From positions 1,488,001 through 1,552,000 of the forward strand of contig NZ_CP150918.1 in assembly GCF_039908635.1 (NCBI RefSeq): a DNA stretch of 64,000 bases, written 5' to 3'. A program made the position numbers and the translations under genes. Below the pieces are notes generated by a model. The model saw nothing but the letters and a program-made list of their open reading frames with translations. It did not search any database and had not been told where the DNA came from. Shown piece by piece: positions 4,969 through 39,510 of this stretch. How positions within the stretch are numbered: the first letter of the stretch is position 1; each line of letters begins with the position of its first letter. The stretch comes from Pseudomonas purpurea. GTDB lineage: Bacteria > Pseudomonadota > Gammaproteobacteria > Pseudomonadales > Pseudomonadaceae.

Positions 4969-5478
4969 TTACACGGCGCGAAAGCGCTTGGCGATCAGGT
5001 GGTCGATCGACAGCACACCCGGGCCTCTGGCCATCAGGTACAGCAGCACGGCTGCCCAGGTGCCGTGGGTCGGGTAGGCGTCCGGGTAGACGAAGGTTTG
5101 AATGATCAGGGTCATGCCCAGCAGGGCCAGCGCCGAGAAGCGGGTAGCGAAGCCGACCAGGATCAGGATCGGAAAGAAGTGTTCGGCGAATGCCGCCATG
5201 TGCGCCGCCAGTTCCGGCGACAGCAGCGGCACAGGGTATTCGCTCTTGAACAAGGGAATGGTCGAGTCTGCAAGCCTCGGTACACCGAGCTGGAACGTAC
5301 CGTCGATCAGGTCGATTGCCAGGCCCTCGACCTTGGTCTGGCCGGACTTCCAGAACACCGCCGCGATGGAAAACCGCGCGATGAATGCGATCAGGCAGTG
5401 AGGGATTTTTTCGAACAGTTCGATGATCCGTTCGATCAGGCGTGCAGCAGCGTCAGGGTGTTCGGTGCGGGTGTTCAT
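4969..5478 (-). CDS. bufD: DoxX-family membrane protein, last gene of the bufferin operon (169 aa)
   Basis: A DoxX-type integral membrane protein with four predicted helices (starting at IAFIARFSIAAVFWKSGQTK, then FFPILILVGFATRFSALALL, LIIQTFVYPD and WAAVLLYLMARGPGVLSID). DoxX proteins are regular partners of DUF692/DUF2063 pairs in metal-responsive bufferin operons, where the role is proposed to be redox or membrane-associated but is not settled. Its ATG overlaps the stop of the upstream DUF2063 gene by 4 bp (ATGA), so the two are translationally coupled. Start at 5478 (MNTRTEH) was chosen for this coupling. Confidence 0.85.
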   Translation of the reverse strand: MNTRTEHPDAAARLIERIIELFEKIPHCLIAFIARFSIAAVFWKSGQTKVEGLAIDLIDGTFQLGVPRLADSTIPLFKSEYPVPLLSPELAAHMAAFAEHFFPILILVGFATRFSALALLGMTLIIQTFVYPDAYPTHGTWAAVLLYLMARGPGVLSIDHLIAKRFRAV

Positions 5479-6248
5479 GGCGATACCTTGTCTGGGTGTA
5501 AGCGGGTGATGGCGTTGTGGCCAATTAAGAGCGCCAGGCATTGGCTGAGGTTGAACGCCGGGGCGGCGTCCTGTGCATCGGCCACGGCAAGTCCCAGCGG
5601 GCGGTTGTCTTGCAGGCTGCGGATGAAGGTCATCGAGCCTGTATCGATGGCGAAAACCTCGACCTCCAGACCGTTGCGCAGCACCAGCGCGGTTTGCGGG
5701 TGATACGGCGCAAGGTCCTGGGGCGGGGTTTCAGCTTGATGGGCTGCCCACAGGGCAACCACGGCGTATGGCGAGTTCAGGGTGAAGGTTGAGGGATGCA
5801 GATCCATGCGTAAGCGGGCGAGGGCTTCCGGGTCACCGATGGCTGCTGCAATCTGCCCGGGCTCGACGGCCTCGGCATCTGCCGCGTGATAGGCCTTGAC
5901 TCGCAGGCGTTCCAACCGCGCTACATCCGCCAGATATGGCACCGTCGCGGCTGGCAAAAAACCTTCGATGAAATCGGCCAGGTCGTTGCCGTAGTCGCTC
6001 ATCAACGGGTTGCCTGGCGGGCATTGCCGTACGTAACACTGGGCCATGCCCCGAAAGAACGCGTCCCCGACCAACTGCACGAGCACCGGGTATCCGTCGA
6101 TCAGGGCGTTGATCAGCGAGCTTTGCACGTTGTTGCGATAAACCGCGAAGCGACTGGCCGGGTCGGCGCCGTTGGCGCTGAACAACCCGCTTGGGCAAAC
6201 CGGTTCCGGGGTGAGCAGGGCCTTACTGAATTCGGATTGAAGGCTCAT
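5475..6248 (-). CDS. bufC: DUF2063 family partner protein of a DUF692/MNIO enzyme (257 aa)
   Basis: The N-terminal third matches the DUF2063 putative DNA-binding-like domain ([18 protein letters not shown], then [13 protein letters not shown] and DLADFIEGF). In MNIO systems this protein is the partner that delivers the precursor peptide to the DUF692 enzyme, in the manner of a RiPP recognition element; HvfC and BufC are examples. Its start codon overlaps the DUF692 stop and its stop overlaps the DoxX start, each by 4 bp, so three genes are tightly coupled. The C-terminal half is less conserved (DDAAP, RLHPDK end). Confidence 0.88.
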
Positions 6249-7138
6249 GGGCGAGCTCCGGCAGACCTGAGCCATTCATCGGCCTGACCCGCTTCGGCCT
6301 GTAACACGCTGAACGCCGGGAGTTGGTTGTCCCGTTCGATCAGCGTAGCCATCGGCCCCACACGTTCGAGCACTTGCCGATACAGCGCCCACACGGCGTT
6401 ATCGATGGGCGCGCCGTGGTCGTCGATCAGCAGTCGATCACCGAGGCTGTCGGTGTCTTCGGCAAAACCTGCCAGATGGATCTCACCGACGGCATACAAC
6501 GGTAGGGCATCGATGTAGGCCAGTGGATCGCGCTGGTGATTGATGCAGGAAACGTAGACGTTGTTGACGTCCAGCAGCAGGCCGCAACCGGTGCGGCGAA
6601 TGACTTCGGTGATGAAAGCGGTTTCGTCGATGCTTGAGCGCTGAAATTGCAGGTAGGTCGCCGGGTTCTCCAGCAGCATCGGACGTTTGAGGCTGTTCTG
6701 AACCTGATCGATGTGCGCGCAGACGCGATTGAGTGTGGGTTCGTCGTACGCCAACGGGAGCAGGTCATTGAGAAACACCGGGCCATGACTGGACCATGCC
6801 AGGTGTTCGGAAAAGGACTGGGGTTGATAGCGCTCGATCAATTGCGCCAGTCGCGCCAGATGCGCTGTGTTGAGCGGCCCTTCGGCGCCAATGGACAGAC
6901 CGACGCCGTGGAGCGACAGCGGGTACTGTTCGCGGATCAATCCCAGGTAATGGTGAAACGGCCCCCCCGCCACCATGTAGTTTTCAGCGTGGACTTCGAA
7001 GAAACCGATGTCCGGGTGTGAACCGAGCACTTCGCGAAAGTGCTCGGTCTTCAGGCCCAGTCCCGCACGGGGCGGGAGCCGGTTCGCGCCTGCCTGGGCA
7101 GCGTGCTGGGTAGGTAGGGCGGGGGAGGTCAGCATCAT
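6245..7138 (-). CDS. bufB: DUF692 multinuclear non-heme iron oxidative enzyme (MNIO) of a bufferin operon (297 aa)
   Basis: A full-length DUF692 TIM-barrel enzyme. Conserved metal-binding motifs are all visible: [50 protein letters not shown] and DDHGAPID. Family knowledge: MNIOs use two or three irons and oxygen to rearrange Cys (or Asp/Asn) side chains in small precursor peptides. BufB and HvfB convert Cys in secreted peptides to thiooxazole-type metal ligands. The likely substrate is the Cys-containing peptide encoded directly upstream (7161-7463), with BufC as its partner. Two consecutive Met codons (7138, 7135) are possible starts. Confidence 0.92.
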
Positions 7139-7160
7139 CGTTGCTCAGGCAGGGGGGCGA

Positions 7161-7463
7161 TTACTTGGCTTTGTAGGCGGCCAGTTGGCCGAAGCCGGTC
7201 GGCGAGGTTGGGCTGGCGGTGGTTTCGCAAGTGCCTTTTGGTACGAGTTTCCAGGCGTTGGCCTGGTGGTCCATTTTCGAGGTGCCGGCGCAGGTGGTGC
7301 CCGCGCCTGCGGCGCAATCGTTTTTACCTTTCATGGCAACGCCAAAGCATTTTTCCATGTCGTCGGCGGCGTGGGCGGTGGTTGGCAGAGCGGCGATGCT
7401 CAAGGCAGAACCGAGGGCCAGGGCGATAGCGGCGGCGGACAGGGTGCGAGTGGTAGCAGTCAT
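7161..7463 (-). CDS. bufA1: Bufferin precursor peptide, DUF2282 family (100 aa)
   Basis: A small secreted precursor with a Sec signal (residues 1-32, cleavage after TTAHA) and four Cys in the mature part: Cys39 (MEKCFG), Cys50 (KNDCAAG), Cys58 (TTCAG) and Cys79 (KGTCE). The motifs EKCxGVAxxGKNDCA, CAG and WKLVPKGTC are diagnostic of DUF2282, the BufA1 type of bufferin. Family knowledge: the Cys are post-translationally modified by the MNIO enzyme and the exported peptide binds copper or related metals. It lacks the EGKCG repeats of HvfA. GGAG lies 7 bases before the ATG. It is the first gene of a four-gene operon; unlike many such operons there is no adjacent ECF sigma/anti-sigma pair. Confidence 0.9.
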
Positions 7464-30132: not shown

Positions 30133-30799
30133 CTGTTTGACGTGGCCCACGACTGCTCAGGATGGGCGCAGGCGTGCGGCGCGTGGTCATTGACCACACC
30201 GCACGTCCATTGCTCCCGGGGATATGTCCATAGGAACGTTGCGCCGGTAAACGGTTCAGGGAGCAGCGGGTTATTCGTCGGATCGGCACCGGCTGATCGG
30301 GTAACGGATGATCAGGGGATTTTCGTCAAACCTCTTGCTATTGGCCTTTGCAGGTGCGGCGGATCGGTCGGGGTATTCAATGCGATGAACGGAGTGACAG
30401 GGGATTAACCAACACTGATCAGGTATCGATTCAATCGCCGGTACAGGCGCATTTCCAATTAAAACGCGAAGTTATCGGGGGCGATGCAGGTGTGCCTGAT
30501 GGGTGTTCTATTTATGACGTTTACAATTAATTGTTTATTGTTTGCAGGAAGTGTTTATTACGTTGGTGCACGAGCTCTCTTTCAGGTTTAACGGTTGTGA
30601 AAGGTCTATCAATTATTATGGATTTAATTTAAGAATCGGCATTATCGATTATCGTGAAACGGTTTAAGGGAAGCCTTTGCTATGGCTGGAAAAGCAAAGA
30701 GGCGTTGCTATATTCAACACTCTCAGGGCGGGCAAGGAACGCTTCATGTCACGTCAGGGGTTTTGTTTTCGTCATGCCGAAATAACAAGGAGAAGTGCG
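30133..30799. other. AT-rich leader region of the RiPP cluster
   Basis: A 667-bp gap. Its right half (30490-30800) is clearly AT-rich relative to the window (GTTTACAATTAATTGTTTAT). A weak sigma70-like promoter can be drawn with TGGAAA (30687-30692) and TATATT (30709-30714), spacing 16. The ribosome-binding sequence AAGGAGA (30790-30796) precedes the precursor ATG. No gene is recognised in the region. Confidence 0.45.
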
Positions 30800-31072
30800 A
30801 TGAGTGCTAATGGTAATAGAGTCAATCAGGAACGCTTGGCTTCGGTTCTCGGACGTGCGGTGCTGGATGAGAAATTTGCCAGCGACCTTCATAAAGATCC
30901 GGCCGGCACTGCTAAAGGTATTGGTGTGCATTTAAGCACTGACGAGATTGCGGCGGTTAAAGGTCTCGATGCTGCAAAACTGACGGCGGCTTCTTCCGGT
31001 ATTCGAAGCAACCTGGGTATTCGCGCGGTGTTTGATACACAGAACCAGCAGCAACAGGCACGTATGGACTAA
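30800..31072 (+). CDS. RiPP precursor peptide with NHLP/Os1348-type leader (90 aa)
   Basis: The N-terminal 60 residues follow the nitrile-hydratase-like leader-peptide pattern: ERLASVLGRAVLDEKFASDL (11-30), HKDPAGTAKGIGVHLSTDEI (31-50) and AVKGLDAAKLTAASS (52-66). The candidate core is the C-terminal 24 residues (67-90) with GIRSNLGIRAVFDTQN then QQQQARMD. It has no Cys, three Asp/Asn that could be hydroxylated, a repeated GIR and a C-terminal Asp90. ATG at 30800 follows AAGGAGA at ideal spacing; longer upstream frames are non-coding. It is the first gene of a four-gene cluster with three modification enzymes. The family role is recognised by pattern, the product is unknown. Confidence 0.85.
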   Translation: MSANGNRVNQERLASVLGRAVLDEKFASDLHKDPAGTAKGIGVHLSTDEIAAVKGLDAAKLTAASSGIRSNLGIRAVFDTQNQQQQARMD

Positions 31073-31122
31073 GGGTCGGTGATGCCGTTTGGCGTACCAC
31101 GGAAGGCGGGTTGATTTCTGCG

Positions 31123-31158
31123 GTGCGTCGAATGGCCCGGTTCAGTGCCATGACGCAC
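31123..31158 (+). promoter_or_regulatory. Stem-loop between the RiPP precursor and its modification genes
   Basis: Arms GTGCGTC (31123-31129) and GACGCAC (31152-31158), with an inner TGGC/GCCA pairing and no T-run, lie in the 113-bp gap between precursor and acetyltransferase. Such intercistronic hairpins often stabilise the upstream message so that the precursor exceeds the enzymes. This role is an inference. Confidence 0.5.
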
Positions 31159-31185
31159 AGTGGTCGATCACGGAGTGAATGACGG

Positions 31186-31662
31186 ATGTCTGTCACCTTG
31201 GCTCCAATGGATAACGCGGACTTTGTTGCGTTCGCCCCAAGAGCCGTTGCCGAGTATGGCGACGGCATGGTGACGGCGGGCGAATGGGCGCAGGAGGAGG
31301 CCTCGCAAAAGGCCCGGAATGTCTTTGAACAATTACTGCCGCAAGGGCGATTGACCGAAAACAATCAACTCTGGGTGATCAAGGATCAAACGCACCGTGT
31401 GGGTGAGTTGTGGGTCGCGCAGCGACACGTTGCTGCCAGGAAGATCGCCTTCATTCTGGATATTTACATTGACCCCGAGGCGCGTCGCCAGGGGTATGCC
31501 AAACAGTCCTTGCTGGCCGTCGAGTCATGGGCGCGGCAGTCAGGGTGCGAGGAAGTACGGTTGCATGTCTTTGGTCGCAACGGTGCGGCTCGTCGTCTTT
31601 ATGAACAATCAGGTTATGGGGTCGCCAGTCTGACGATGGCGAAGCCGTTGCCGCCAACCTAA
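31186..31662 (+). CDS. GNAT-family N-acetyltransferase in the RiPP cluster (158 aa)
   Basis: The acetyl-CoA pyrophosphate-binding motif of GNAT enzymes is present as RRQGYAKQSL (residues about 102-111) after the strand IAFILDIYIDPEA, with the C-terminal helix-strand GRNGAARRLYEQSGYGVASL. The N-terminal 60 residues are typical of GNATs but lack a recognisable substrate-specificity signature. Context, with a precursor upstream and two oxidative enzymes downstream and 15-bp gaps, makes acetylation of the peptide or of its N-terminus, or self-protection against the product, the likeliest roles. Whether it modifies the peptide is not shown by the sequence. Confidence 0.85.
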   Translation: MSVTLAPMDNADFVAFAPRAVAEYGDGMVTAGEWAQEEASQKARNVFEQLLPQGRLTENNQLWVIKDQTHRVGELWVAQRHVAARKIAFILDIYIDPEARRQGYAKQSLLAVESWARQSGCEEVRLHVFGRNGAARRLYEQSGYGVASLTMAKPLPPT

Positions 31663-31677
31663 GGGAAGGTTGAGAAC

Positions 31678-32838
31678 ATGGATATCGGGAGCAGTGGTCA
31701 GCGTGAGCTTACCGTCGACGAGTTGTTTCAGGGCACGACCTTTCTGCCGGATTCGGAGCCCTCACGATTTGAAGCATTGCTGGAGCGAGTCAGTCGAAAT
31801 CGCTACACGTGCTTTGCTGCGCTGTACACCGAACTTTTTCAAATGTTTAAAGACGCCCCGCATTTGGCGGAGTTCTTTGAACAGGCCTTTAACCTTATTG
31901 TGCCGCCGACTCGTGAACAGCGTTTGATTATCAATGATCCGGTATTTCAAATATGGAACCTGTTGGCGTCCCATCATGCGAACCAGGTGATAACGAACAA
32001 GGCTACGAATACTAAAGAGCTGGAAAAAATGCTCGTCGAGTTTCCAGAGATGTTGGCGCGTGTGAAAACTCCAGACACGGCGCGGCTGAATGAGTATTGC
32101 CCGCCGGTGTATCGGTTCAATGTCGACCCGCTGTTGGCGATAGCCGCGCCTCCCAGTTATGAGTTTCCGAAAGATGAGGCCACCCGCAAACAGTTGGAGC
32201 GAAACGGTTATTCCGTGAATTTCTTTTGCGATGTCATGAATATTGCCTTGTTGCGAATAGAACATAGCTGGCCGGCCTGCCATGAGCAGTTCAGACGGCT
32301 GGTCAAGTCGGTGTGTTATTTGCCCGATGGTTCATTTCGCAGCTGTTCGGCTTCGCGCTTCACCGGGATCATTCTGTTATCGAGCCGGGATGATTCGATA
32401 CTCGATATGGAAGAGTCACTGGTGCATGAGGCCACTCATCAACTGCTCTATCACATTGTCGAAGTGTGCCCGGTGATTAACGAAGACGCCTCGCGTGAGG
32501 CGATCTGCACTTTGCCGTGGTCGGGGCAGAAACGTGATGTGTATGGCTATTTCCATGCGTTTTTCGTGTATGTCGCCTTGGTCAAGTACCTGGGGCGGGT
32601 TCGCTCGCGCTCGTCCCGCGAACTGCAACGGGCGCAAAACCGTCTGGTGTTCATCCTGCAAGGCTTGATCAAGGCGTTGCCGGACTTTGAGGGCAGCACG
32701 GATTTCACGCCTCAGGGGCGCCAGCTTCTGGAAAACCTGATCAAGGAGGTCAGGGTTCTGGAAAGCCAGTACGCCGGGCTGTTGGCGATATCGGGGAGGG
32801 CGACTGGGCCGGAGCGCTTGCTGGGTTTGACCGCTTGA
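31678..32838 (+). CDS. HExxH-motif peptide-modification protein (386 aa)
   Basis: The sequence contains HEATH (residues 250-254, in SLVHEATHQLLYHIVEV), with a candidate third ligand His293 in GYFHAFFVYVAL. This arrangement matches the HExxH family found beside RiPP precursors. Some members are now regarded as iron- and 2-oxoglutarate-dependent peptide beta-hydroxylases rather than proteases; that assignment is family-based inference. There is no signal peptide or membrane segment, so it acts in the cytoplasm. The N-terminal 230 residues resemble other RiPP-cluster proteins only in general helical character. It sits 15 bp after the GNAT gene and 15 bp before the MNIO-SagB gene. Confidence 0.82.
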   Translation: MDIGSSGQRELTVDELFQGTTFLPDSEPSRFEALLERVSRNRYTCFAALYTELFQMFKDAPHLAEFFEQAFNLIVPPTREQRLIINDPVFQIWNLLASHHANQVITNKATNTKELEKMLVEFPEMLARVKTPDTARLNEYCPPVYRFNVDPLLAIAAPPSYEFPKDEATRKQLERNGYSVNFFCDVMNIALLRIEHSWPACHEQFRRLVKSVCYLPDGSFRSCSASRFTGIILLSSRDDSILDMEESLVHEATHQLLYHIVEVCPVINEDASREAICTLPWSGQKRDVYGYFHAFFVYVALVKYLGRVRSRSSRELQRAQNRLVFILQGLIKALPDFEGSTDFTPQGRQLLENLIKEVRVLESQYAGLLAISGRATGPERLLGLTA

Positions 32839-32853
32839 GCCTGGGAGGCGGGC

Positions 32854-34821
32854 ATGACGATGTTTGATGCTGCGCAGTTTCCCGAGGCGGGCGTCGGGTT
32901 GGAATACCATTTACCCGCCCATAGCCCTCAGGCTGTCCTTTCGCAGGAGGGGCTCGACCCGACGGTCGAGCGGATTCTGGCGGAGGGGTTGCCGCACTTC
33001 GATTACGTCGAGTTCCAGCCGACCCACTGCATTCTGGAGCCGCGCCTGCTTGAACTCGGCGCTCAGGTCCCGAGTTTGCTGCATTCGTCCAGTTTGTCCC
33101 TGGGCAGCGTGGGGATTGCGATGGACCGCGAGTTCCTGAACATGACGCGGCGCCTGTGTGACAAAACCCGTTCGCCCTGGCTGGCCGAGCATATTTCCTG
33201 GTCGCGGTTTCACGGTGGCGACACCCAGCACTTCATTTTGCCGACCCTGGCCCAGGAGGTGGCTGACACGGTGGTGGCCAATGCCCTCGAACTGCGTGAG
33301 TTCAGTGCGACCTTGCTGGTGCTGGAGAACGCACCGCGCCTGTTTTCATTGCACGATGCCCAGGAGCAGTCCGAAGGCGAGTTCATCTCACGGGTGGTGG
33401 AGCGCAGCGGTTCGGGTTTTCTGCTGGACCTCGACAGTGCGATCACGACCGCCAGGACTCAGGGGTACGACCTGAACGACTATTTGCGTTCATTGCCGTT
33501 GGATCGATTGATTGAAATTCACACTGCAGACCCGCAGCGGGATTGGGACATCCTGCGTCAGTTGTGCGACTCATCGCCGGTGAAAGCCATCACCCTGGAG
33601 TGGGATATTTCTCGCAAGAGCGAGGACGCAACGCTGTTGGCGTTGATCAGGGCGATCAAATCCCTGCGGCCTCACGCCTTGTTCTGGCAGGGTGCTGACC
33701 GGCAGGTACGGCCAACGCCGACCGAGCAGGGCGCACAGACACTGTTGAAGCTCAGGGAAAGCACCTGGATCAGTGTTGGCTCGGCCTCGTTTTTTATCCG
33801 TGATCAACAGCATGACCTGAGCCTGGAATTTTGCGTGGCGCTGTTGCCGTTGCTGCGCCACTTCCTGACGCCCCAGACGCTGGGCAGTGCCTTGTTGCTG
33901 CCGGGGGTTTTGCAGAGCCCCGAACAGGATGACAACCTGGCGTTCCTGCGGGAACTGGTCCACCACGGTGTCCTGCTGCCCCATCCATCGGACGCTGCCA
34001 CCGGCGAGGCGTGTACCCCCCCGGTCAACCTTTGGGCTCATTGGGATGCGGCACTGGCGTTTTACCTGAGTACCCGGACCGGGTCGCACACGCCTTACAT
34101 CAGCGTCAGTGACCTGGAAACGGAGCTGGAGCAAAAGGCCACGGCGCGACGTCAGCCGTCGGCGTTCAAGGATTATTTCTCCCATCCGTTCGTGGCCCTG
34201 GAAAACCCGCTGTTGCTGGCTTCCAGCGCGATGGCTCAATCGACGTTGCTCGATTCGTTGTGCAATCGCCGCACGTCGCGAACTTTCAGTGAGCAGCCGT
34301 TGAGTTCGCAGCAGTTGTCGGCGTTGCTTTACTACACCTGGGGCGCGACCGTCATGGAACAGAACCGCATGGGGGATTATTTCCTGAAGAAGACCTCGGC
34401 GGCCGGAGGCTCGCTGCACGGCACCGAGGTCTATGCGGTGTTGATGAATGTGCAAGGTCTGGAACGCGGTGTTTACCACTATTCGGTACGCCGCCATGGG
34501 CTTGAGCTGCTTGCCCGGGAAGACCCGCACACCTGGATCTGTGAGGCCTGTGGCGAGCAGGCATGGATCAAAGGGGCGGCGGCGGTGTTTGTGTCCACGG
34601 CGCGGGTCGAACGAATGGCCTGGAAGTACGAGTTCAGCCGGGCGCTGCGGGTGGCGTTGATGGATGCCGGGCATGTGAGTCAGACTTTTTCGCTGGTGGC
34701 CACTGCCCTGGGCCTCGGCAGCTTCACCACGGCGGCCTTGCGCGACGAAGTGTTCGAAAACCGCCTGGGCCTCAACTACCTGGAGGAGCCGGTGTTTTTG
34801 GTCAATGGGGTGGGAGGTTGA
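32854..34821 (+). CDS. DUF692/MNIO domain fused to a SagB-type FMN dehydrogenase domain (655 aa)
   Basis: A single chain with two oxidative modules. Residues about 10-285 are DUF692-like: LLHSSSLSLGSVGIAMD, LAEHISWSRFHGGDTQHFIL, VLENAPRLFSL, GFLLDLDSAITTA and LIEIHTADPQRD correspond to metal-binding segments of MNIO enzymes. The canonical DVNN is replaced by DLDS, and the terminal DDHGAPI segment is not seen (TLEWDIS in its place). Residues about 285-400 are a linker. Residues about 410-655 are a SagB/nitroreductase dehydrogenase with RRTSRTF (472-478), SAAGGSLHGTEVYAVLM and GVYHYSVRRHGLELL. MNIOs oxidise Cys, Asp or Asn in peptides; SagB-type enzymes oxidise azolines or related intermediates using FMN. 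The 2-kb frame is intact. Confidence 0.88.
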   Translation: MTMFDAAQFPEAGVGLEYHLPAHSPQAVLSQEGLDPTVERILAEGLPHFDYVEFQPTHCILEPRLLELGAQVPSLLHSSSLSLGSVGIAMDREFLNMTRRLCDKTRSPWLAEHISWSRFHGGDTQHFILPTLAQEVADTVVANALELREFSATLLVLENAPRLFSLHDAQEQSEGEFISRVVERSGSGFLLDLDSAITTARTQGYDLNDYLRSLPLDRLIEIHTADPQRDWDILRQLCDSSPVKAITLEWDISRKSEDATLLALIRAIKSLRPHALFWQGADRQVRPTPTEQGAQTLLKLRESTWISVGSASFFIRDQQHDLSLEFCVALLPLLRHFLTPQTLGSALLLPGVLQSPEQDDNLAFLRELVHHGVLLPHPSDAATGEACTPPVNLWAHWDAALAFYLSTRTGSHTPYISVSDLETELEQKATARRQPSAFKDYFSHPFVALENPLLLASSAMAQSTLLDSLCNRRTSRTFSEQPLSSQQLSALLYYTWGATVMEQNRMGDYFLKKTSAAGGSLHGTEVYAVLMNVQGLERGVYHYSVRRHGLELLAREDPHTWICEACGEQAWIKGAAAVFVSTARVERMAWKYEFSRALRVALMDAGHVSQTFSLVATALGLGSFTTAALRDEVFENRLGLNYLEEPVFLVNGVGG

Positions 34822-34850: not shown

Positions 34851-34881
34851 AAAAAGCCCACCAAAGGTGGGCTTCGTTTTT
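34851..34881. terminator. Rho-independent terminator between the RiPP cluster and ttgC
   Basis: Stem GCCCACC/GGTGGGC (34856-34862/34866-34872), AAA loop, T-run on the plus strand and A-run on the left for the minus strand. It lies 30 bp after the MNIO-SagB stop and 10 bp before the ttgC stop, so it probably serves both. Confidence 0.85.
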
Positions 34882-34890
34882 ACGCGCTGA

Positions 34891-36349
34891 TCAGAACATC
34901 TTCAGCTTCGGTGCTTCTTCTTTCACAGGTTCGTTCTTCGCGGTCTGTGCGTTCCAGCCGCCACCCAGGGCCTTGTACAGGTTGACCTCGCTGGTCAGCT
35001 GGGACAGGCGGTCAGTGATCAACGCTTGTTGCGCGCTGAACAACTGACGTTGGGCGTCGAGGAAGGTCAGGTTGCTGTCGACGCCAATGCGATAGCGACG
35101 CTCGGCCAGACGGTAGTAGTCCTGGTTCGCGCTAACGAAGTCACGCTGGGCCTGCAACTGTTGGTTGAAGGTCTGGCGTGCGGCGAGGCCGTCGGAGACT
35201 TCCTGGAAAGCGGTCTGAATCGACTTCTCATACTGCGCGACGGTGATGTCTTTCTGGATTTTCGAGTAATCCAGGCTGGCACGCAGGGAACCGGCATTGA
35301 AGATCGGCAGGTTGATTTGCGGCTGGAACAACCAGGTCCCCGAACCGCCCTTGAACAGACCGGACAGGTCCGTGCTGAGGGAGCCGGCATTGGCGGTCAG
35401 GCTGATGCTCGGGAAGAACGCCGCACGCGCCGCGCCAATGTTGGCGTTGGCGGACTTGAGCTTGTGCTCTGCCTCAAGGATGTCCGGGCGACGTTGCAGC
35501 AGGTCCGAAGGCAGACCGGCCGGTACTTCGCTGAGCAGGTCATCGGACAACGGCTGGCTGGCCAGGTTGGCTGGCAGGCCGGTGCCAAGCAGCAGGGTCA
35601 GGCTGTTTTCATCCTGGGCGACCTGGCGGGTATAACGCGCCAGTTGTACCCGGGCGCTTTCCACGGAGGTGCGCGACTGGCTCAGGTCCAGCGCCGAGGC
35701 CACGCCCACTTCGTTGCTGCGCGCAGTGAGCTTGTAGCTCTCCTCGAAGGCCGCGAGAGTGTCCTGGGTCAGCTTCAGCAGTTCCTTGTCGGCCCTGCCA
35801 GGTCAGGTAGGCATTGGCCACGCTGGCCACCAGGCTGATCTGGGTGCTGCGGCGTGCTTCTTCAGTGGCGAAGTACGATTGCAGCGCTTGCTCGTTCAGG
35901 CTGCGAACGCGACCAAAGAGGTCGAGTTCGTATGCGCTGACGCCCAGGGTTGCCGAGTAGGAACTGGTGATGCCGGACTCGCCTGTCGGCGAGGCCCGCT
36001 GCGAAATACGCTGGCGACTGCCGCTGCCGTTGGCCGATACGGCCGGGAACAGGTCGGCGCGCGAAATGCGGTACTGGGCCGCATAGGCGTCGATGTTCAG
36101 GGCTGCGACGCGCAGGTCACGGTTGTTTTCCAGCGCGGTCTGAATCAGTTGTTGCAGTGCCGGGTCATGGAAAAACTGCTTCCAGCCTTGTTCGGCAGCG
36201 GCCTGGCTCGCCGCCTGGGCCGGCGAGTAGGCCGGTCCTTGCGGGTATTGCCCGGCAACGGGTGCTTCAGGCTGCTGATACTCCGGTATCAGCGAGCAGC
36301 CACCGAGCACGAACGCGGCGATGGCTAGGGAGAGTAGCGACTTGCTCAT
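34891..36349 (-). pseudogene. ttgC: RND efflux outer-membrane channel TtgC/EmhC/OprM, frameshifted
   Basis: Two frames make a full outer-membrane factor of about 485 aa. The first (35609-36349) has a lipoprotein signal (lipobox LGGC) and the first half of the TolC-like repeat, ending at VANAYLTWQ. The second (34891-35709) continues with [40 protein letters not shown] and ends in [10 protein letters not shown]. The break is at 35791-35795: CAGGCCGAC is read as CAGGGCCGAC on the coding strand, one extra base at a GGCC site. Removal gives [14 protein letters not shown], matching the family. It exports solvents and antibiotics across the outer membrane with TtgA and TtgB, and is the third gene of the operon. 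Confidence 0.9.
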
Positions 36350-39300
36350 TGGCCAGCCTCTTTAAGGGTTTCAGTTGCGTCATCCTGATCCACGTTCTTG
36401 CGTTGACCCATCGACGACACGGTGACAAAGAATAGCGGCACCCAGAAAATTGCCAGAATCGTGGCCGTCAGCATCCCGCCGATCACCCCGGTACCGATGG
36501 CGTGCTGGCTGCCCGAGCCTGCACCGGTGGAGATGGCCAGTGGTACTACGCCGAGGACGAACGCCAGCGAGGTCATGATGATCGGGCGCAGACGCATCCG
36601 GCAGGCTTCGATGGCCGCGTCCCTCAGGCTGCGTCCCTGTTCATGCAGTTCCTTGGCGAATTCGACGATCAGAATGGCGTTTTTCGCCGCCAGGCCGATG
36701 GTCGTCAACAGGCCTACCTGGAAGTACACGTCGTTGGACAAACCGCGCAGGCTGGTGGCGAGCAGGGCACCGATGATCCCCAGCGGTACAACCAACATCA
36801 CCGCGATCGGAATCGACCAGCTTTCGTACAGCGCCGCGAGGCAGAGGAACACCATCAGCAGCGACAGCGCGTACAAGGCCGGCGCTTGCGAGCCGGACAA
36901 ACGTTCCTCATAGGACAGGCCAGTCCAGGAAATACCGACACCGGCCGGCAGTTTCTTGGCAATGGCTTCGACTTCGGCCATGGCTTCACCGGTGGAGTAG
37001 CCCGGTGCTGGAGCCCCGAGGATTTCCATCGCTTCGACGCCGTTGTAACGGGCCAGTTTCGGCGAGCCGTAGATCCATTGCCCCTTGGCGAAGGAGGAGA
37101 ACGGCACCATGGTTCCGGCACTGTTGCGCACGTACCACTTCTTCAGGTCTTCAGGGCTCATGCGAGCGCCGGGCAGACCTTGTACGTAAACCTTTTTCAC
37201 CCGACCACGGTCAATGAAGTCGTTGACGTAGCTACTGCCCAAGGCAATCGACAGGGTGCTGTTGATGTCGGTCAGTGTCACGCCCAGGGCGCTGGCCTTC
37301 TCGTCATCGATTTCGAGCTGGTATTGCGGTTCGTCGTTCAGGCCGTTCGGACGCACCTGCGACAGCACCTTGCTCTGGGCTGCCATGCCGAGGAACTGGT
37401 TACGCGCAGCCATCAGCTTGTCGTGACCGATACCGGCACGGTCTTGCAGGAACACGTCGAAACCGGTGGCGTTACCCAGCTCCAGTACCGCCGGTGGTGC
37501 GAAAGCAAACACCATGGCGTCACGGAAGGTGAAGAAGTGCTGTTGGGCACGGGCCGCCACCTTGAACACGCTGTTGTCGGCGTTACGCTGATCCCACGGC
37601 TTGAGCATGATGAACGCCATGCCCGAACTCTGGCCACGACCGGCGAAGTTGAAACCGGTCACGGTAAACACCGAGTTCACGGCATCGCCTTCACCGCCAT
37701 CCTTGCCGGGACGCAGCAGGAATTCACGCATCTCGTCGACCACCACCTGGGTGCGTTCGGCACTGGAACCGGCCGGCGTCTGGACCTGAGCGAACAGAAC
37801 GCCCTGGTCTTCTTCCGGAAGGAACGCTGTCGGGATACGGGTGAACAGCCAGATCATGCCGACCACGATGATCAGGTAAGCCAGCAGGTACGGAGCCTTG
37901 TACTTGAGCATGTTGCCCACGCCGCGCTCGTAGCTGCGTACACCCCGGTCGAAGTTACGGTTGAACCAGCCGAAGAAGCCGCGTTTCGGTACGCCGTGCT
38001 CGCCCTTGGGAATGGCCTTGAGCATGGTGGCGCACAGCGCCGGGGTGAAGATCAGGGCAACCAGCACCGACAGGGCCATGGCCGAGACGATGGTGATCGA
38101 GAACTGCTTGTAGATCACACCGGTCGAGCCGCTGAAGAACGCCATCGGCAGCAGTACCGCCGACAGTACCAGCGCGATACCGACCAGTGCGCCCTGGATC
38201 TGGCCCATGGATTTTTTGGTGGCTTCCTTGGGCGACAGGCCTTCCTCGCTCATCACCCGCTCGACGTTTTCCACCACGACGATGGCGTCGTCCACCAGCA
38301 AGCCGATGGCCAGCACCATGCCGAACATGGTCAGGGTGTTGATGCTGAAACCGAAGGCCGCGAGGATCCCGAACGTACCCAGCAGAACCACGGGCACGGT
38401 CATCGTGGTGATGACGGTGGCGCGGAAGTTTTGCAGGAACAGGAACATCACCAGGAACACCAGCACGATCGCTTCGACCAGGGTTTCAACCACGCCCTTG
38501 ATCGACTCGGTCACCACTGGCGTGGTGTCGTACGGGAACACCACTTCCATGCCTTCCGGGAAGAACGGCTTGAGGTCGTCGATGGTTTTGCGCAGTGCCT
38601 TGGCGGTGTCGAGGGCGTTGGCACCGTTGGCCAGTTTTACTGCCAGACCGGATGCCGGGCTGCCGTTGAACTGGGCGCTGATGCTGTAGTTTTCACCACC
38701 AAGGCCCACATCGGCGACGTCGGCCAGGCGAACCTGCGAGCCGTCCTTGTTGACCTTGAGCAGGATTTCCTTGAACTGCTCGGCCGTTTGCAGACGGGTC
38801 TTGCCAATGATGGTGGCGTTCAGTTGCTGGCCGGGAGCGGCGGGCAGGCCGCCGAGCTGGCCGGATGAGACCTGGACGTTCTGGGCGGCGATGGCCGTTT
38901 TGACGTCTACCGGGGTCAGGTTGTAGTTGTTCAACCTGGCCGGGTCGAGCCAGATACGCATCGCATACTGGGCACCGAACACCTGGAAGTCACCCACACC
39001 CGCGGTCCGCGAGATCGGGTCCTGCATGTTGGACACGATGTAGTTGGACAGGTCGTCCTTGGTCATGCTGCCGTCGCGCGAAACCACGCCGATCACCAGC
39101 AGGAAGTTCTTCACGGCCTTGGTGACGCGGATGCCCTGTTGCTGCACTTCTTGCGGCAGCAGCGGGGTGGCCAGGTTCAGTTTGTTTTGGACCTGAACCT
39201 GTGCGGTGTCGGAGTTGGTACCTTGCTCGAAGGTCGCGGTGATGGTCATGCTGCCGTCGGAGTTACTTTCCGAGGACACATAACGCAGGTTGTCGATACC

Positions 39301-39510
39301 GTTGAGCTGCTGCTCGATGACCTGCACCACGGTGTCCTGCACGGTTTGTGCGGACGCGCCTGGGTAGGTCACGGAGATGGCGATCGCCGGAGGGGCGATG
39401 CTCGGGTATTGGTTGATCGGCAGTTTGAGGATCGATAGAGCCCCGACCAACATGATCACCAGGGCAATTACCCAGGCGAAAATCGGACGGTCGATAAAAA
39501 ATTTCGACAT
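36346..39510 (-). CDS. ttgB: RND efflux pump inner-membrane transporter TtgB/EmhB/MexB (1054 aa)
   Basis: A proton-driven multidrug pump of the HAE1 family with twelve helices and two large periplasmic loops. The start [20 protein letters not shown] and the proton-relay segment [16 protein letters not shown] (conserved Asp-Asp) are diagnostic, as is the C-terminal segment [20 protein letters not shown]. Homologues in solvent-tolerant Pseudomonas extrude toluene, chloramphenicol, tetracycline and polycyclic aromatics. The stop overlaps the ttgC start by 4 bp, and ttgA lies 2 bp upstream, so the operon is ttgA-ttgB-ttgC. Confidence 0.95.

What the first reader, a model, noticed from the sequence alone, without database searches (positions are those of the whole stretch)
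30800..34821. Compact RiPP gene cluster: NHLP-like precursor + GNAT + HExxH protein + MNIO-SagB fusion
Seen: four same-strand genes with short gaps. They encode a 90-aa leader-peptide-like protein, a GNAT acetyltransferase, an HExxH-motif protein and one chain joining a DUF692/MNIO-like domain to a SagB-type FMN dehydrogenase domain, ended by a terminator. Known: each of these folds modifies peptides in RiPP pathways. Inference: together they form a modification pathway for a peptide that has no Cys, so classical MNIO or azoline chemistry on Cys is excluded, and Asp, Asn, Ser, Thr or Arg must be the targets. I do not know of a characterised product for this combination. No dedicated transporter or protease is present.
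Basis: partly seen in the sequence, partly recalled or inferred. Interest (0 to 1): 0.92.

Follow-up and report, generated by a model that had tools for sequence, protein, structure and literature searches.

The report
Known-type Pseudomonas peptide-modifying gene cluster
This is a four-gene set in a Pseudomonas chromosome that makes and chemically trims a small peptide; the same set has already been studied in two related strains, so it is a new copy of a known system.

Summary
In detail: precursor 30800-31072, GNAT 31186-31662, HExxH 31678-32838, MNIO-SagB fusion 32854-34821. The system is not new. It is an ortholog, in the same place beside emhC/emhB, of cluster OS3 of Pseudomonas sp. Os17 (PMC7726476; precursor structure PDB 6LK7) and of the pfl/pos clusters, whose enzymes were worked out by co-expression (PMC12636437). 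By that precedent HExxH beta-hydroxylates the Gln run and cuts oxidatively before ARMD, leaving an amide; SagB makes Z-dehydroPhe; MNIO hydroxylates the next Asp. Our precursor ends FDTQNQQQQ-ARMD, so these steps are predicted, not measured, here. Added here: a RiPP recognition element lies between the MNIO and SagB domains (residues 293-382). A sister type pairs a precursor ending mostly in V/I-RxD with HExxH alone. A third lineage, without a precursor found, has lost two conserved histidines (H250 to R, H293 to Q) yet looks selected to be kept.

The parts
30687..30714 (+). promoter-like site with extended -10 (TGGAAA, 16 nt, TATATT, TG before)
   Evidence: one found, shuffle mean 1.7; the TTGCTATATT block is conserved in the 7 upstream regions aligned, of 13 loci given, and in the 6 type-2 relatives.
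30788..30792 (+). AGGAG ribosome-binding site of the precursor
   Evidence: Read from sequence; GGAG conserved in the 7 rows.
30800..31072 (+). precursor peptide (A), 90 aa, Os1348-family NHLP leader plus C-terminal core
   Evidence: PDB 6LK7 (Os1348), E 1.4e-30.
31031..31057 (+). core residues F78-D79-T80-Q81-N82-Q83..Q86: predicted dehydroPhe78, hydroxyAsp79, beta-hydroxylated Gln and perhaps Asn
   Evidence: Sequence and numbering; modification assigned by analogy with PflA/PosA (PMC12636437).
31058..31069 (+). ARMD tail (A87-D90), predicted to be cut off oxidatively before A87, leaving an amide on Q86
   Evidence: Sequence; motif conserved except AQMD in one relative; chemistry from PMC12636437.
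31186..31662 (+). GNAT acetyltransferase (B), 158 aa; substrate unproved
   Evidence: PF00583, 61.1 bits.
31678..32838 (+). alpha-ketoglutarate-type HExxH peptide hydroxylase (C), 386 aa
   Evidence: TIGR04267, 108 bits; ChlH 8S5F match.
32425..32439 (+). HEATH metal motif (H250-H254) of C
32854..34821 (+). fusion enzyme (D), 655 aa: MNIO - RRE - SagB
32881..33678 (+). MNIO domain of D (about residues 10-275); H77 invariant in the 14 proteins aligned
33730..33999 (+). RiPP recognition element of D (residues 293-382)
   Evidence: AF2 pLDDT 85.4; best structural matches TigE, MccB, ThcOx, BmdC, TbiB1, PbtF RRE.
34309..34815 (+). SagB/nitroreductase FMN dehydrogenase domain of D (residues 486-654)
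   Evidence: TIGR03605, 120.2 bits; 3EO7 and ThcOx by sequence.
34854..34874 (+). intrinsic-terminator-like hairpin between D and convergent emhC

Best explanation
The locus is a member of the pfl/pos (Os17 OS3) RiPP family. The NHLP leader presents the C-terminal core to the enzymes; an RRE inside D probably binds the leader. The SagB domain of D oxidises Phe78 to Z-dehydrophenylalanine and the MNIO domain hydroxylates Asp79. The aKG/Fe HExxH enzyme C hydroxylates the beta-carbons of the Gln residues in Q81-Q86 and probably of N82, then attacks the alpha-carbon of Ala87, so that ARMD leaves and Gln86 ends as an amide. Predicted mass shifts are -378.2 Da with C alone (six hydroxylations; -394.2 if N82 is spared) and -364.2 or -380.2 with C and D. 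The GNAT probably acetylates the new N-terminus after a housekeeping protease has removed the leader. Shown here: gene order, families, motifs, conservation, predicted RRE fold. Inferred from orthologs: every chemical step. Speculative: leader removal, acetylation, export by EmhABC.
For: A, B, C and D are 65%, 61%, 58% and 64% identical to those of the G061 genome (L035). The G061 match positions lie within 6 bases of the Os17 OS3 gene ends in Table 1 of PMC7726476, and its precursor equals the PDB 6LK7 sequence over the stretch aligned. The precursor ends in FD, a Q/N run and ARMD, as PflA and PosA do. The GM50 precursor (L031) ends LGTAAIFDQQQQIQARMD, as printed for PflA, and the D of GM50 is 84% identical to ours. 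emhC lies downstream in 10 of 11 named loci and in 10 of the 11 sampled genomes with this precursor type; at least three genomes are in both sets, judged by equal contig lengths. NF038399, TIGR04267, PF05114 and TIGR03605 pass their cut-offs. HEATH is intact. dN/dS of C is 0.17, 0.16 and 0.25 against three relatives.
Against: No chemistry was measured on this strain. The precursor has Asn in the run and six candidate sites, against four or five in the studied peptides, so the count of hydroxylations may differ. PosD was inactive in E. coli and PflB showed no activity in the paper, so the D steps rest on PflD alone and the B step on nothing. The full-length model of D is weak (mean pLDDT 64.7, pTM 0.47), with the SagB part poorly modelled. 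In Os17, deletion of the C ortholog did not lower antibiotic activity while deletion of A or D did. PflC and PosC worked only in part on each other's precursor, so recognition is not freely transferable.
Confidence: 0.9

Rival explanations
1. An uncharacterised pathway in which MNIO, SagB and HExxH act on Asp, Asn, Ser, Thr or Arg.
For: No Cys in the precursor; Asp is a real target in PflA; an engineered Asn was hydroxylated by PosC.
Against: Orthologous enzymes with conserved core residues act on Phe, Asp, Gln and Ala (PMC12636437).
Confidence: 0.04
2. The product is the near-full-length, C-terminally trimmed small protein: the leader stays on and the folded NHLP domain (a dimer in 6LK7) is part of the active or signalling molecule.
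For: Os1348 protein of about full size was seen in Os17 cells by Western blot and its crystal structure suggested a dimer; none of the four genes is a dedicated leader protease.
Against: Leaders are normally removed; a GNAT in the cluster suggests a new N-terminus; leader conservation is also explained by enzyme recognition (PMC12636437). Full-length recombinant, unmodified Os1348 had no antibiotic activity.
Confidence: 0.25
3. The HExxH protein is a plain metallopeptidase that processes the precursor (the early suggestion for Os1350).
For: HExxH motif; higher Os1348 level in the Os1350 mutant; PflC hydrolyses leaderless peptide.
Against: Membership of TIGR04267, match to ChlH, and aKG-dependent hydroxylation and amidation by PflC/PosC with the leader present.
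Confidence: 0.03

Closest known systems
pfl (P. fluorescens CH267) and pos (Pseudomonas sp. Os17) BGCs, Ouyang et al., PMC12636437 (listed elsewhere as JACS 2026, 148, 3551, not held)
   Same: Gene order A-B-C-D, NHLP leader, FD then Gln run then ARMD, MNIO-nitroreductase fusion.
   Different: Our core is FDTQNQQQQARMD: Asn inside the run and six candidate hydroxylation sites. An RRE inside D is not mentioned in the preprint's main text (term search); its supplement was not read.
Cluster OS3 (Os1348-Os1351), Takeuchi et al. 2020, PMC7726476 (abstract and passages seen)
   Same: Same four genes in the same place beside emhABC/emhR; precursor solved as 6LK7.
   Different: 58-65% protein identity; the biology (GacA control, antibiotic effect) was tested there, not here.
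adjamnio-III group, PMC12452194 (passages seen)
   Same: HExxH protein next to an MNIO/nitroreductase fusion (11 sequences).
   Different: That paper identified no precursor gene for this group.
pes cluster (nitrilobacillins), PMC13060819 (passages seen)
   Same: MNIO hydroxylates Asp, aKG-HExxH hydroxylates a core residue (Pro).
   Different: MNIO with a separate partner protein; nitrile-forming enzyme instead of oxidative cleavage; from Peribacillus.
ChlH, aKG-HExxH hydroxylase (PDB 8S5F)
   Same: Same catalytic domain (E 2.4e-9, residues 235-354).
ThcOx (PDB 5LQ4)
   Same: RRE plus SagB-type FMN domain; both parts match ours.
   Different: Oxidase of the cyanobactin pathway (title); azoline substrate and lack of an MNIO domain are from recall.

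Membership tests
pfl/pos (Os17 OS3) RiPP clusters | NHLP-type (Os1348 family) precursor | tested here: met
   NF038399 70.7 bits, cut-off 40; 6LK7 match.
pfl/pos (Os17 OS3) RiPP clusters | C-terminal Phe-Asp, consecutive Gln, ARMD | tested here: met
   FDTQNQQQQARMD, with one Asn in the run; one relative, A-RE-19/G609, ends AQMD instead.
pfl/pos (Os17 OS3) RiPP clusters | GNAT, HExxH and MNIO-nitroreductase fusion, in this order | tested here: met
   conserved in 11 of 11 named loci and in all 11 sampled genomes with this precursor type, of 16 with any precursor match and 398 searched; in one of the 11, G764, D lies in two frames.
pfl/pos (Os17 OS3) RiPP clusters | emhABC efflux genes downstream | tested here: met
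   emhC/emhB at 34891-39510 of the window; emhC in 10 of 11 named loci; not found near the P. batumici copy.
pfl/pos (Os17 OS3) RiPP clusters | Gln beta-hydroxylation, oxidative cut before Ala, dehydroPhe, hydroxyAsp | not testable with these tools
   Needs co-expression and MS.
aKG-HExxH peptide beta-hydroxylases (TIGR04267) | profile match and intact HExxH | tested here: met
   108 bits, cut-off 40; HEATH at 250-254.
MNIO (PF05114) | profile match and barrel fold | tested here: met
MNIO (PF05114) | iron ligands, including the third-iron HxD motif | not tested
   H77 is invariant in 14 proteins, but ligands were not mapped. PMC13060819 states that HxD is missing in PflD.
SagB-type dehydrogenases (TIGR03605) | profile match | tested here: met
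   120.2 bits, cut-off 78.4.
SagB_rel_DH_2 (TIGR04511) | score above curated cut-off | tested here: not met
   158.5 bits, cut-off 240.
RiPP recognition element (RRE) | winged-helix RRE fold | tested here: met
RiPP recognition element (RRE) | binds the leader peptide | not testable with these tools
   Needs binding assay or structure.

The most novel reading that the evidence does not exclude
The HExxH family of this cluster has split in Pseudomonas into three states. (1) Cut-and-amidate, the window's type. (2) A minimal precursor plus HExxH pair whose core ends mostly FDQQQ-VRTD (Val or Ile at the scission residue in five of six). Since the A91V variant of PosA is hydroxylated but not cut, it may make an uncut, poly-hydroxylated peptide. 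(3) A lineage without a precursor found, in which two histidines conserved in the other members examined are lost (H250 to R, H293 to Q) but the protein is kept under purifying selection. That would be a RiPP oxygenase turned into a pseudoenzyme.
Probability: 0.45. Interest if true: 0.55.

Novelty: new member of a known kind. Interest (0 to 1): 0.33.

Why it matters
The system's chemistry is unusual (dehydroPhe, oxidative amidation by a HExxH enzyme) but published. This copy offers a natural test of the Gln-run rule (Asn inside, six sites). The RRE predicted in the fusion suggests how one chain could deliver one peptide to two oxidative active sites. The sister lineages give ready-made natural variants for asking which residue decides between cutting and hydroxylating, and what remains of a RiPP enzyme after its metal site is lost. 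The function of the natural product remains open.

Tried and rejected
Mobile or plasmid origin: no match of the cluster DNA in 72,556 plasmid records, no precursor match there, and no viral-contig relative of the precursor.

Spread outside Pseudomonas: 0 hits outside the genus in 398 Pseudomonadota genomes at E 1e-60 (2 hits, both in the genus). One protein hit named as an Allosphingosinicella MAG (P0070, 51%) and an unnamed one (P0071, 46%) exist; their neighbourhoods were not fetched.

RNA structure of the precursor's 5' leader (for Gac/Rsm control): no signal, z 0.60.

SOS control of the type-2 pair next to lexA2: a palindrome GGAGTACATTTGTACTCC lies beside lexA2, roughly 280 to 300 bases from the precursor start, so no support.

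H293 as third metal ligand: kept in 21 of 29 retrieved relatives plus ours and lost in the same 8 that lost H250. But the rSAM-protein relative 22NU shows Q in the aligned position, so the ligand role is unproved.

Full-length fold searches were mostly filled by the MNIO barrel; the RRE matches came when its stretch was folded alone.

Literature: full-text searches. They led to the papers cited. I made no search aimed at the type-2 and type-3 loci beyond a term search of the preprint's main text, so I do not claim that they are absent from print.
Full report
Searches give four intact same-strand ORFs: precursor 30800-31072 (90 aa), GNAT 31186-31662, HExxH 31678-32838, fusion 32854-34821, with gaps of 113, 15 and 15 bases. 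name them: Os1348-family NHLP precursor (NF038399, 70.7 bits, cut-off 40), GNAT (PF00583), aKG-HExxH peptide beta-hydroxylase (TIGR04267, 108 bits, cut-off 40), and MNIO (PF05114) joined to SagB (TIGR03605). The fusion's SagB part falls below the cut-off of the more specific TIGR04511 (158.5 against 240). A promoter-like site with an extended -10 (30687-30714) and a terminator-like hairpin (34854-34874) bracket the genes. The promoter scan found no more than shuffles give and the hairpin scan little more, but the -10 block is conserved in the 7 upstream regions aligned.

It is a known system. Pseudomonas sp. Os17 cluster OS3 (PMC7726476; abstract and passages seen) has the same four genes upstream of emhABC/emhR. 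There the precursor gene depends on GacA, loss of the precursor or of the SagB gene lowers activity against B. subtilis, loss of the GNAT or HExxH gene does not, and the precursor's structure was solved (PDB 6LK7, matched here at E 1.4e-30). Genome G061 carries this cluster within 6 bases of the positions printed for Os17. PMC12636437 (parts 1-4 of 6 and legends read) worked out the orthologous pfl and pos enzymes by co-expression and in vitro. PflC/PosC beta-hydroxylate the Gln run and cut oxidatively before ARMD to an amide. PflD makes Z-dehydroPhe (nitroreductase domain) and hydroxyAsp (MNIO domain). PflB showed no activity, and PosD was inactive in E. coli. The final natural product is not known. 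PMC12452194 had noted HExxH proteins beside MNIO/nitroreductase fusions (passages). PMC13174530 lists the journal version, JACS 2026 (not held).

Conservation. Eleven named Pseudomonas loci hold a full-length D and all 11 have A, B, C and D; emhC lies downstream in 10 of 11 (the exception is P. batumici UCM B-321). In 398 sampled genomes of the genus, 16 have a precursor match. Eleven of the 16 are of the window's type and all 11 have A-B-C-D; in one of them (G764, L058) D lies in two frames. At least three genomes are in both sets of 11. Full-length D was found in 4 of 149 genomes, own included. In the protein collection 67 of 69 hits to D (query included; only the 7,997 best candidates were scored) carry both Pfam domains; the other two are shorter proteins with one domain each. 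Cores of the window's type vary: QQQQ, QQQQQ, QNQQQQ, QQQQIQ, QQQQVQ and QQQNVQ, with AQMD instead of ARMD in the last. One distant precursor (P0090) ends LLDQQQNQQQARMD, without the Phe. Outside the genus only protein hits were found (P0070, named Allosphingosinicella MAG); P0071 is unnamed.

(3) Sister lineages. Six of the 398 genomes carry a second type of locus, divergent from a lexA2-like gene and its neighbours (imuA, imuB, dnaE2: names from recall, read from ORFs). It has an Os1348-family precursor (57.1 bits in the one tested) and an HExxH gene 54.6-56.7% identical to ours, with no match to the GNAT or the fusion in the 11-17 kb read. One of the six, G079, has the window's type as well. 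Their cores end FDQQQVRTD (4), FDQQRIRMD (1) and VDPQQARTN (1; its enzyme reads HETTQ, so the second motif His is lost). In PosA the Ala to Val change stops cutting but not hydroxylation, hence the prediction of an uncut product. Four further genomes carry the HExxH relative with no precursor recognised in the flank read. In all four the motif reads RExxH and H293 is Q. Among 29 relatives retrieved with one of these as query, 8 (the query's own record included) show both changes, with source names P. gingeri, agarici, vanderleydeniana and asplenii where given; the other 21 keep H250, E251, H254 and H293. dN/dS between pairs of these orphans is 0.24, 0.24 and 0.27, close to the 0.12-0.26 of the eight other pairs, so the genes appear maintained. 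One split of the tree, supported 100/100, puts types 2 and 3 on one side and the window's type on the other (midpoint root, so direction of change is not shown). In three of the four orphans (L089, L091, L092) the gene begins 383-385 bases from the lexA2-like gene, near where the type-2 precursor begins (345-358), which fits loss of the precursor. By L090 no lexA2-like gene was found in the 12 kb read, so it sits elsewhere.

Mechanism and limits. All chemistry for this strain is inferred from orthologs: 58-65% identity to the pos-type genome. The pfl proteins were not at hand; GM50, whose precursor tail equals the printed PflA tail, has D 84% identical to ours. Leader removal, the GNAT's substrate and export remain open. 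The rival that the near-full-length small protein is the product is not excluded.

Judgement. The finding is a correct reading of a real cluster but of a published kind; its novelty lies in details (Asn-containing run, RRE inside the fusion) and in relatives elsewhere.

Noticed in passing
L062-L067 (six Pseudomonas genomes): A second Os1348-family precursor ending FDQQQVRTD, FDQQRIRMD or VDPQQARTN with an HExxH gene but no GNAT or fusion, divergent from a lexA2-like gene.
   Followed up: partly
L089-L092; proteins P0091-P0098: HExxH relatives (no precursor found beside the four loci read) that have lost H250 (R) and H293 (Q) yet show dN/dS 0.24-0.27: candidate RiPP pseudoenzymes.
   Followed up: partly
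window 4969-7463, - strand: A separate bufferin-like cluster (ORFs): Cys-containing precursor with signal peptide (7161-7463), MNIO (6245-7138), a probable DUF2063-type partner (5475-6275) and a DoxX-like protein (4969-5541); names from recall except the MNIO match.
   Followed up: no
window about 28.0 kb (MFS-like), 29.9 kb (deacetylase-like), 35.65 kb (emhC): Three neighbouring genes appear split between two frames; for emhC and the deacetylase the match positions in relative L024 are in one frame. Sequencing error or decay; the four cluster genes are intact.
   Followed up: partly
L027 9947-11993: Between D and emhC of P. brassicacearum 48H11 lie an extra emhC end and a piece like the D C-terminus (57%), suggesting past recombination at this junction.
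   Followed up: no
G000:C1:5500842-5501438 (L002): A stand-alone SagB-type protein (382-aa frame, 35%) elsewhere in the genome, with similar partial matches in many of the 149 genus genomes.
   Followed up: no
P0090 (83 aa; no source name): A distant precursor ending ALLDQQQNQQQARMD, with Leu where Phe is dehydrogenated in PflA.
   Followed up: no
L058 5083-7019 (G764): The fusion gene D lies in two reading frames in this relative; described only.
   Followed up: no
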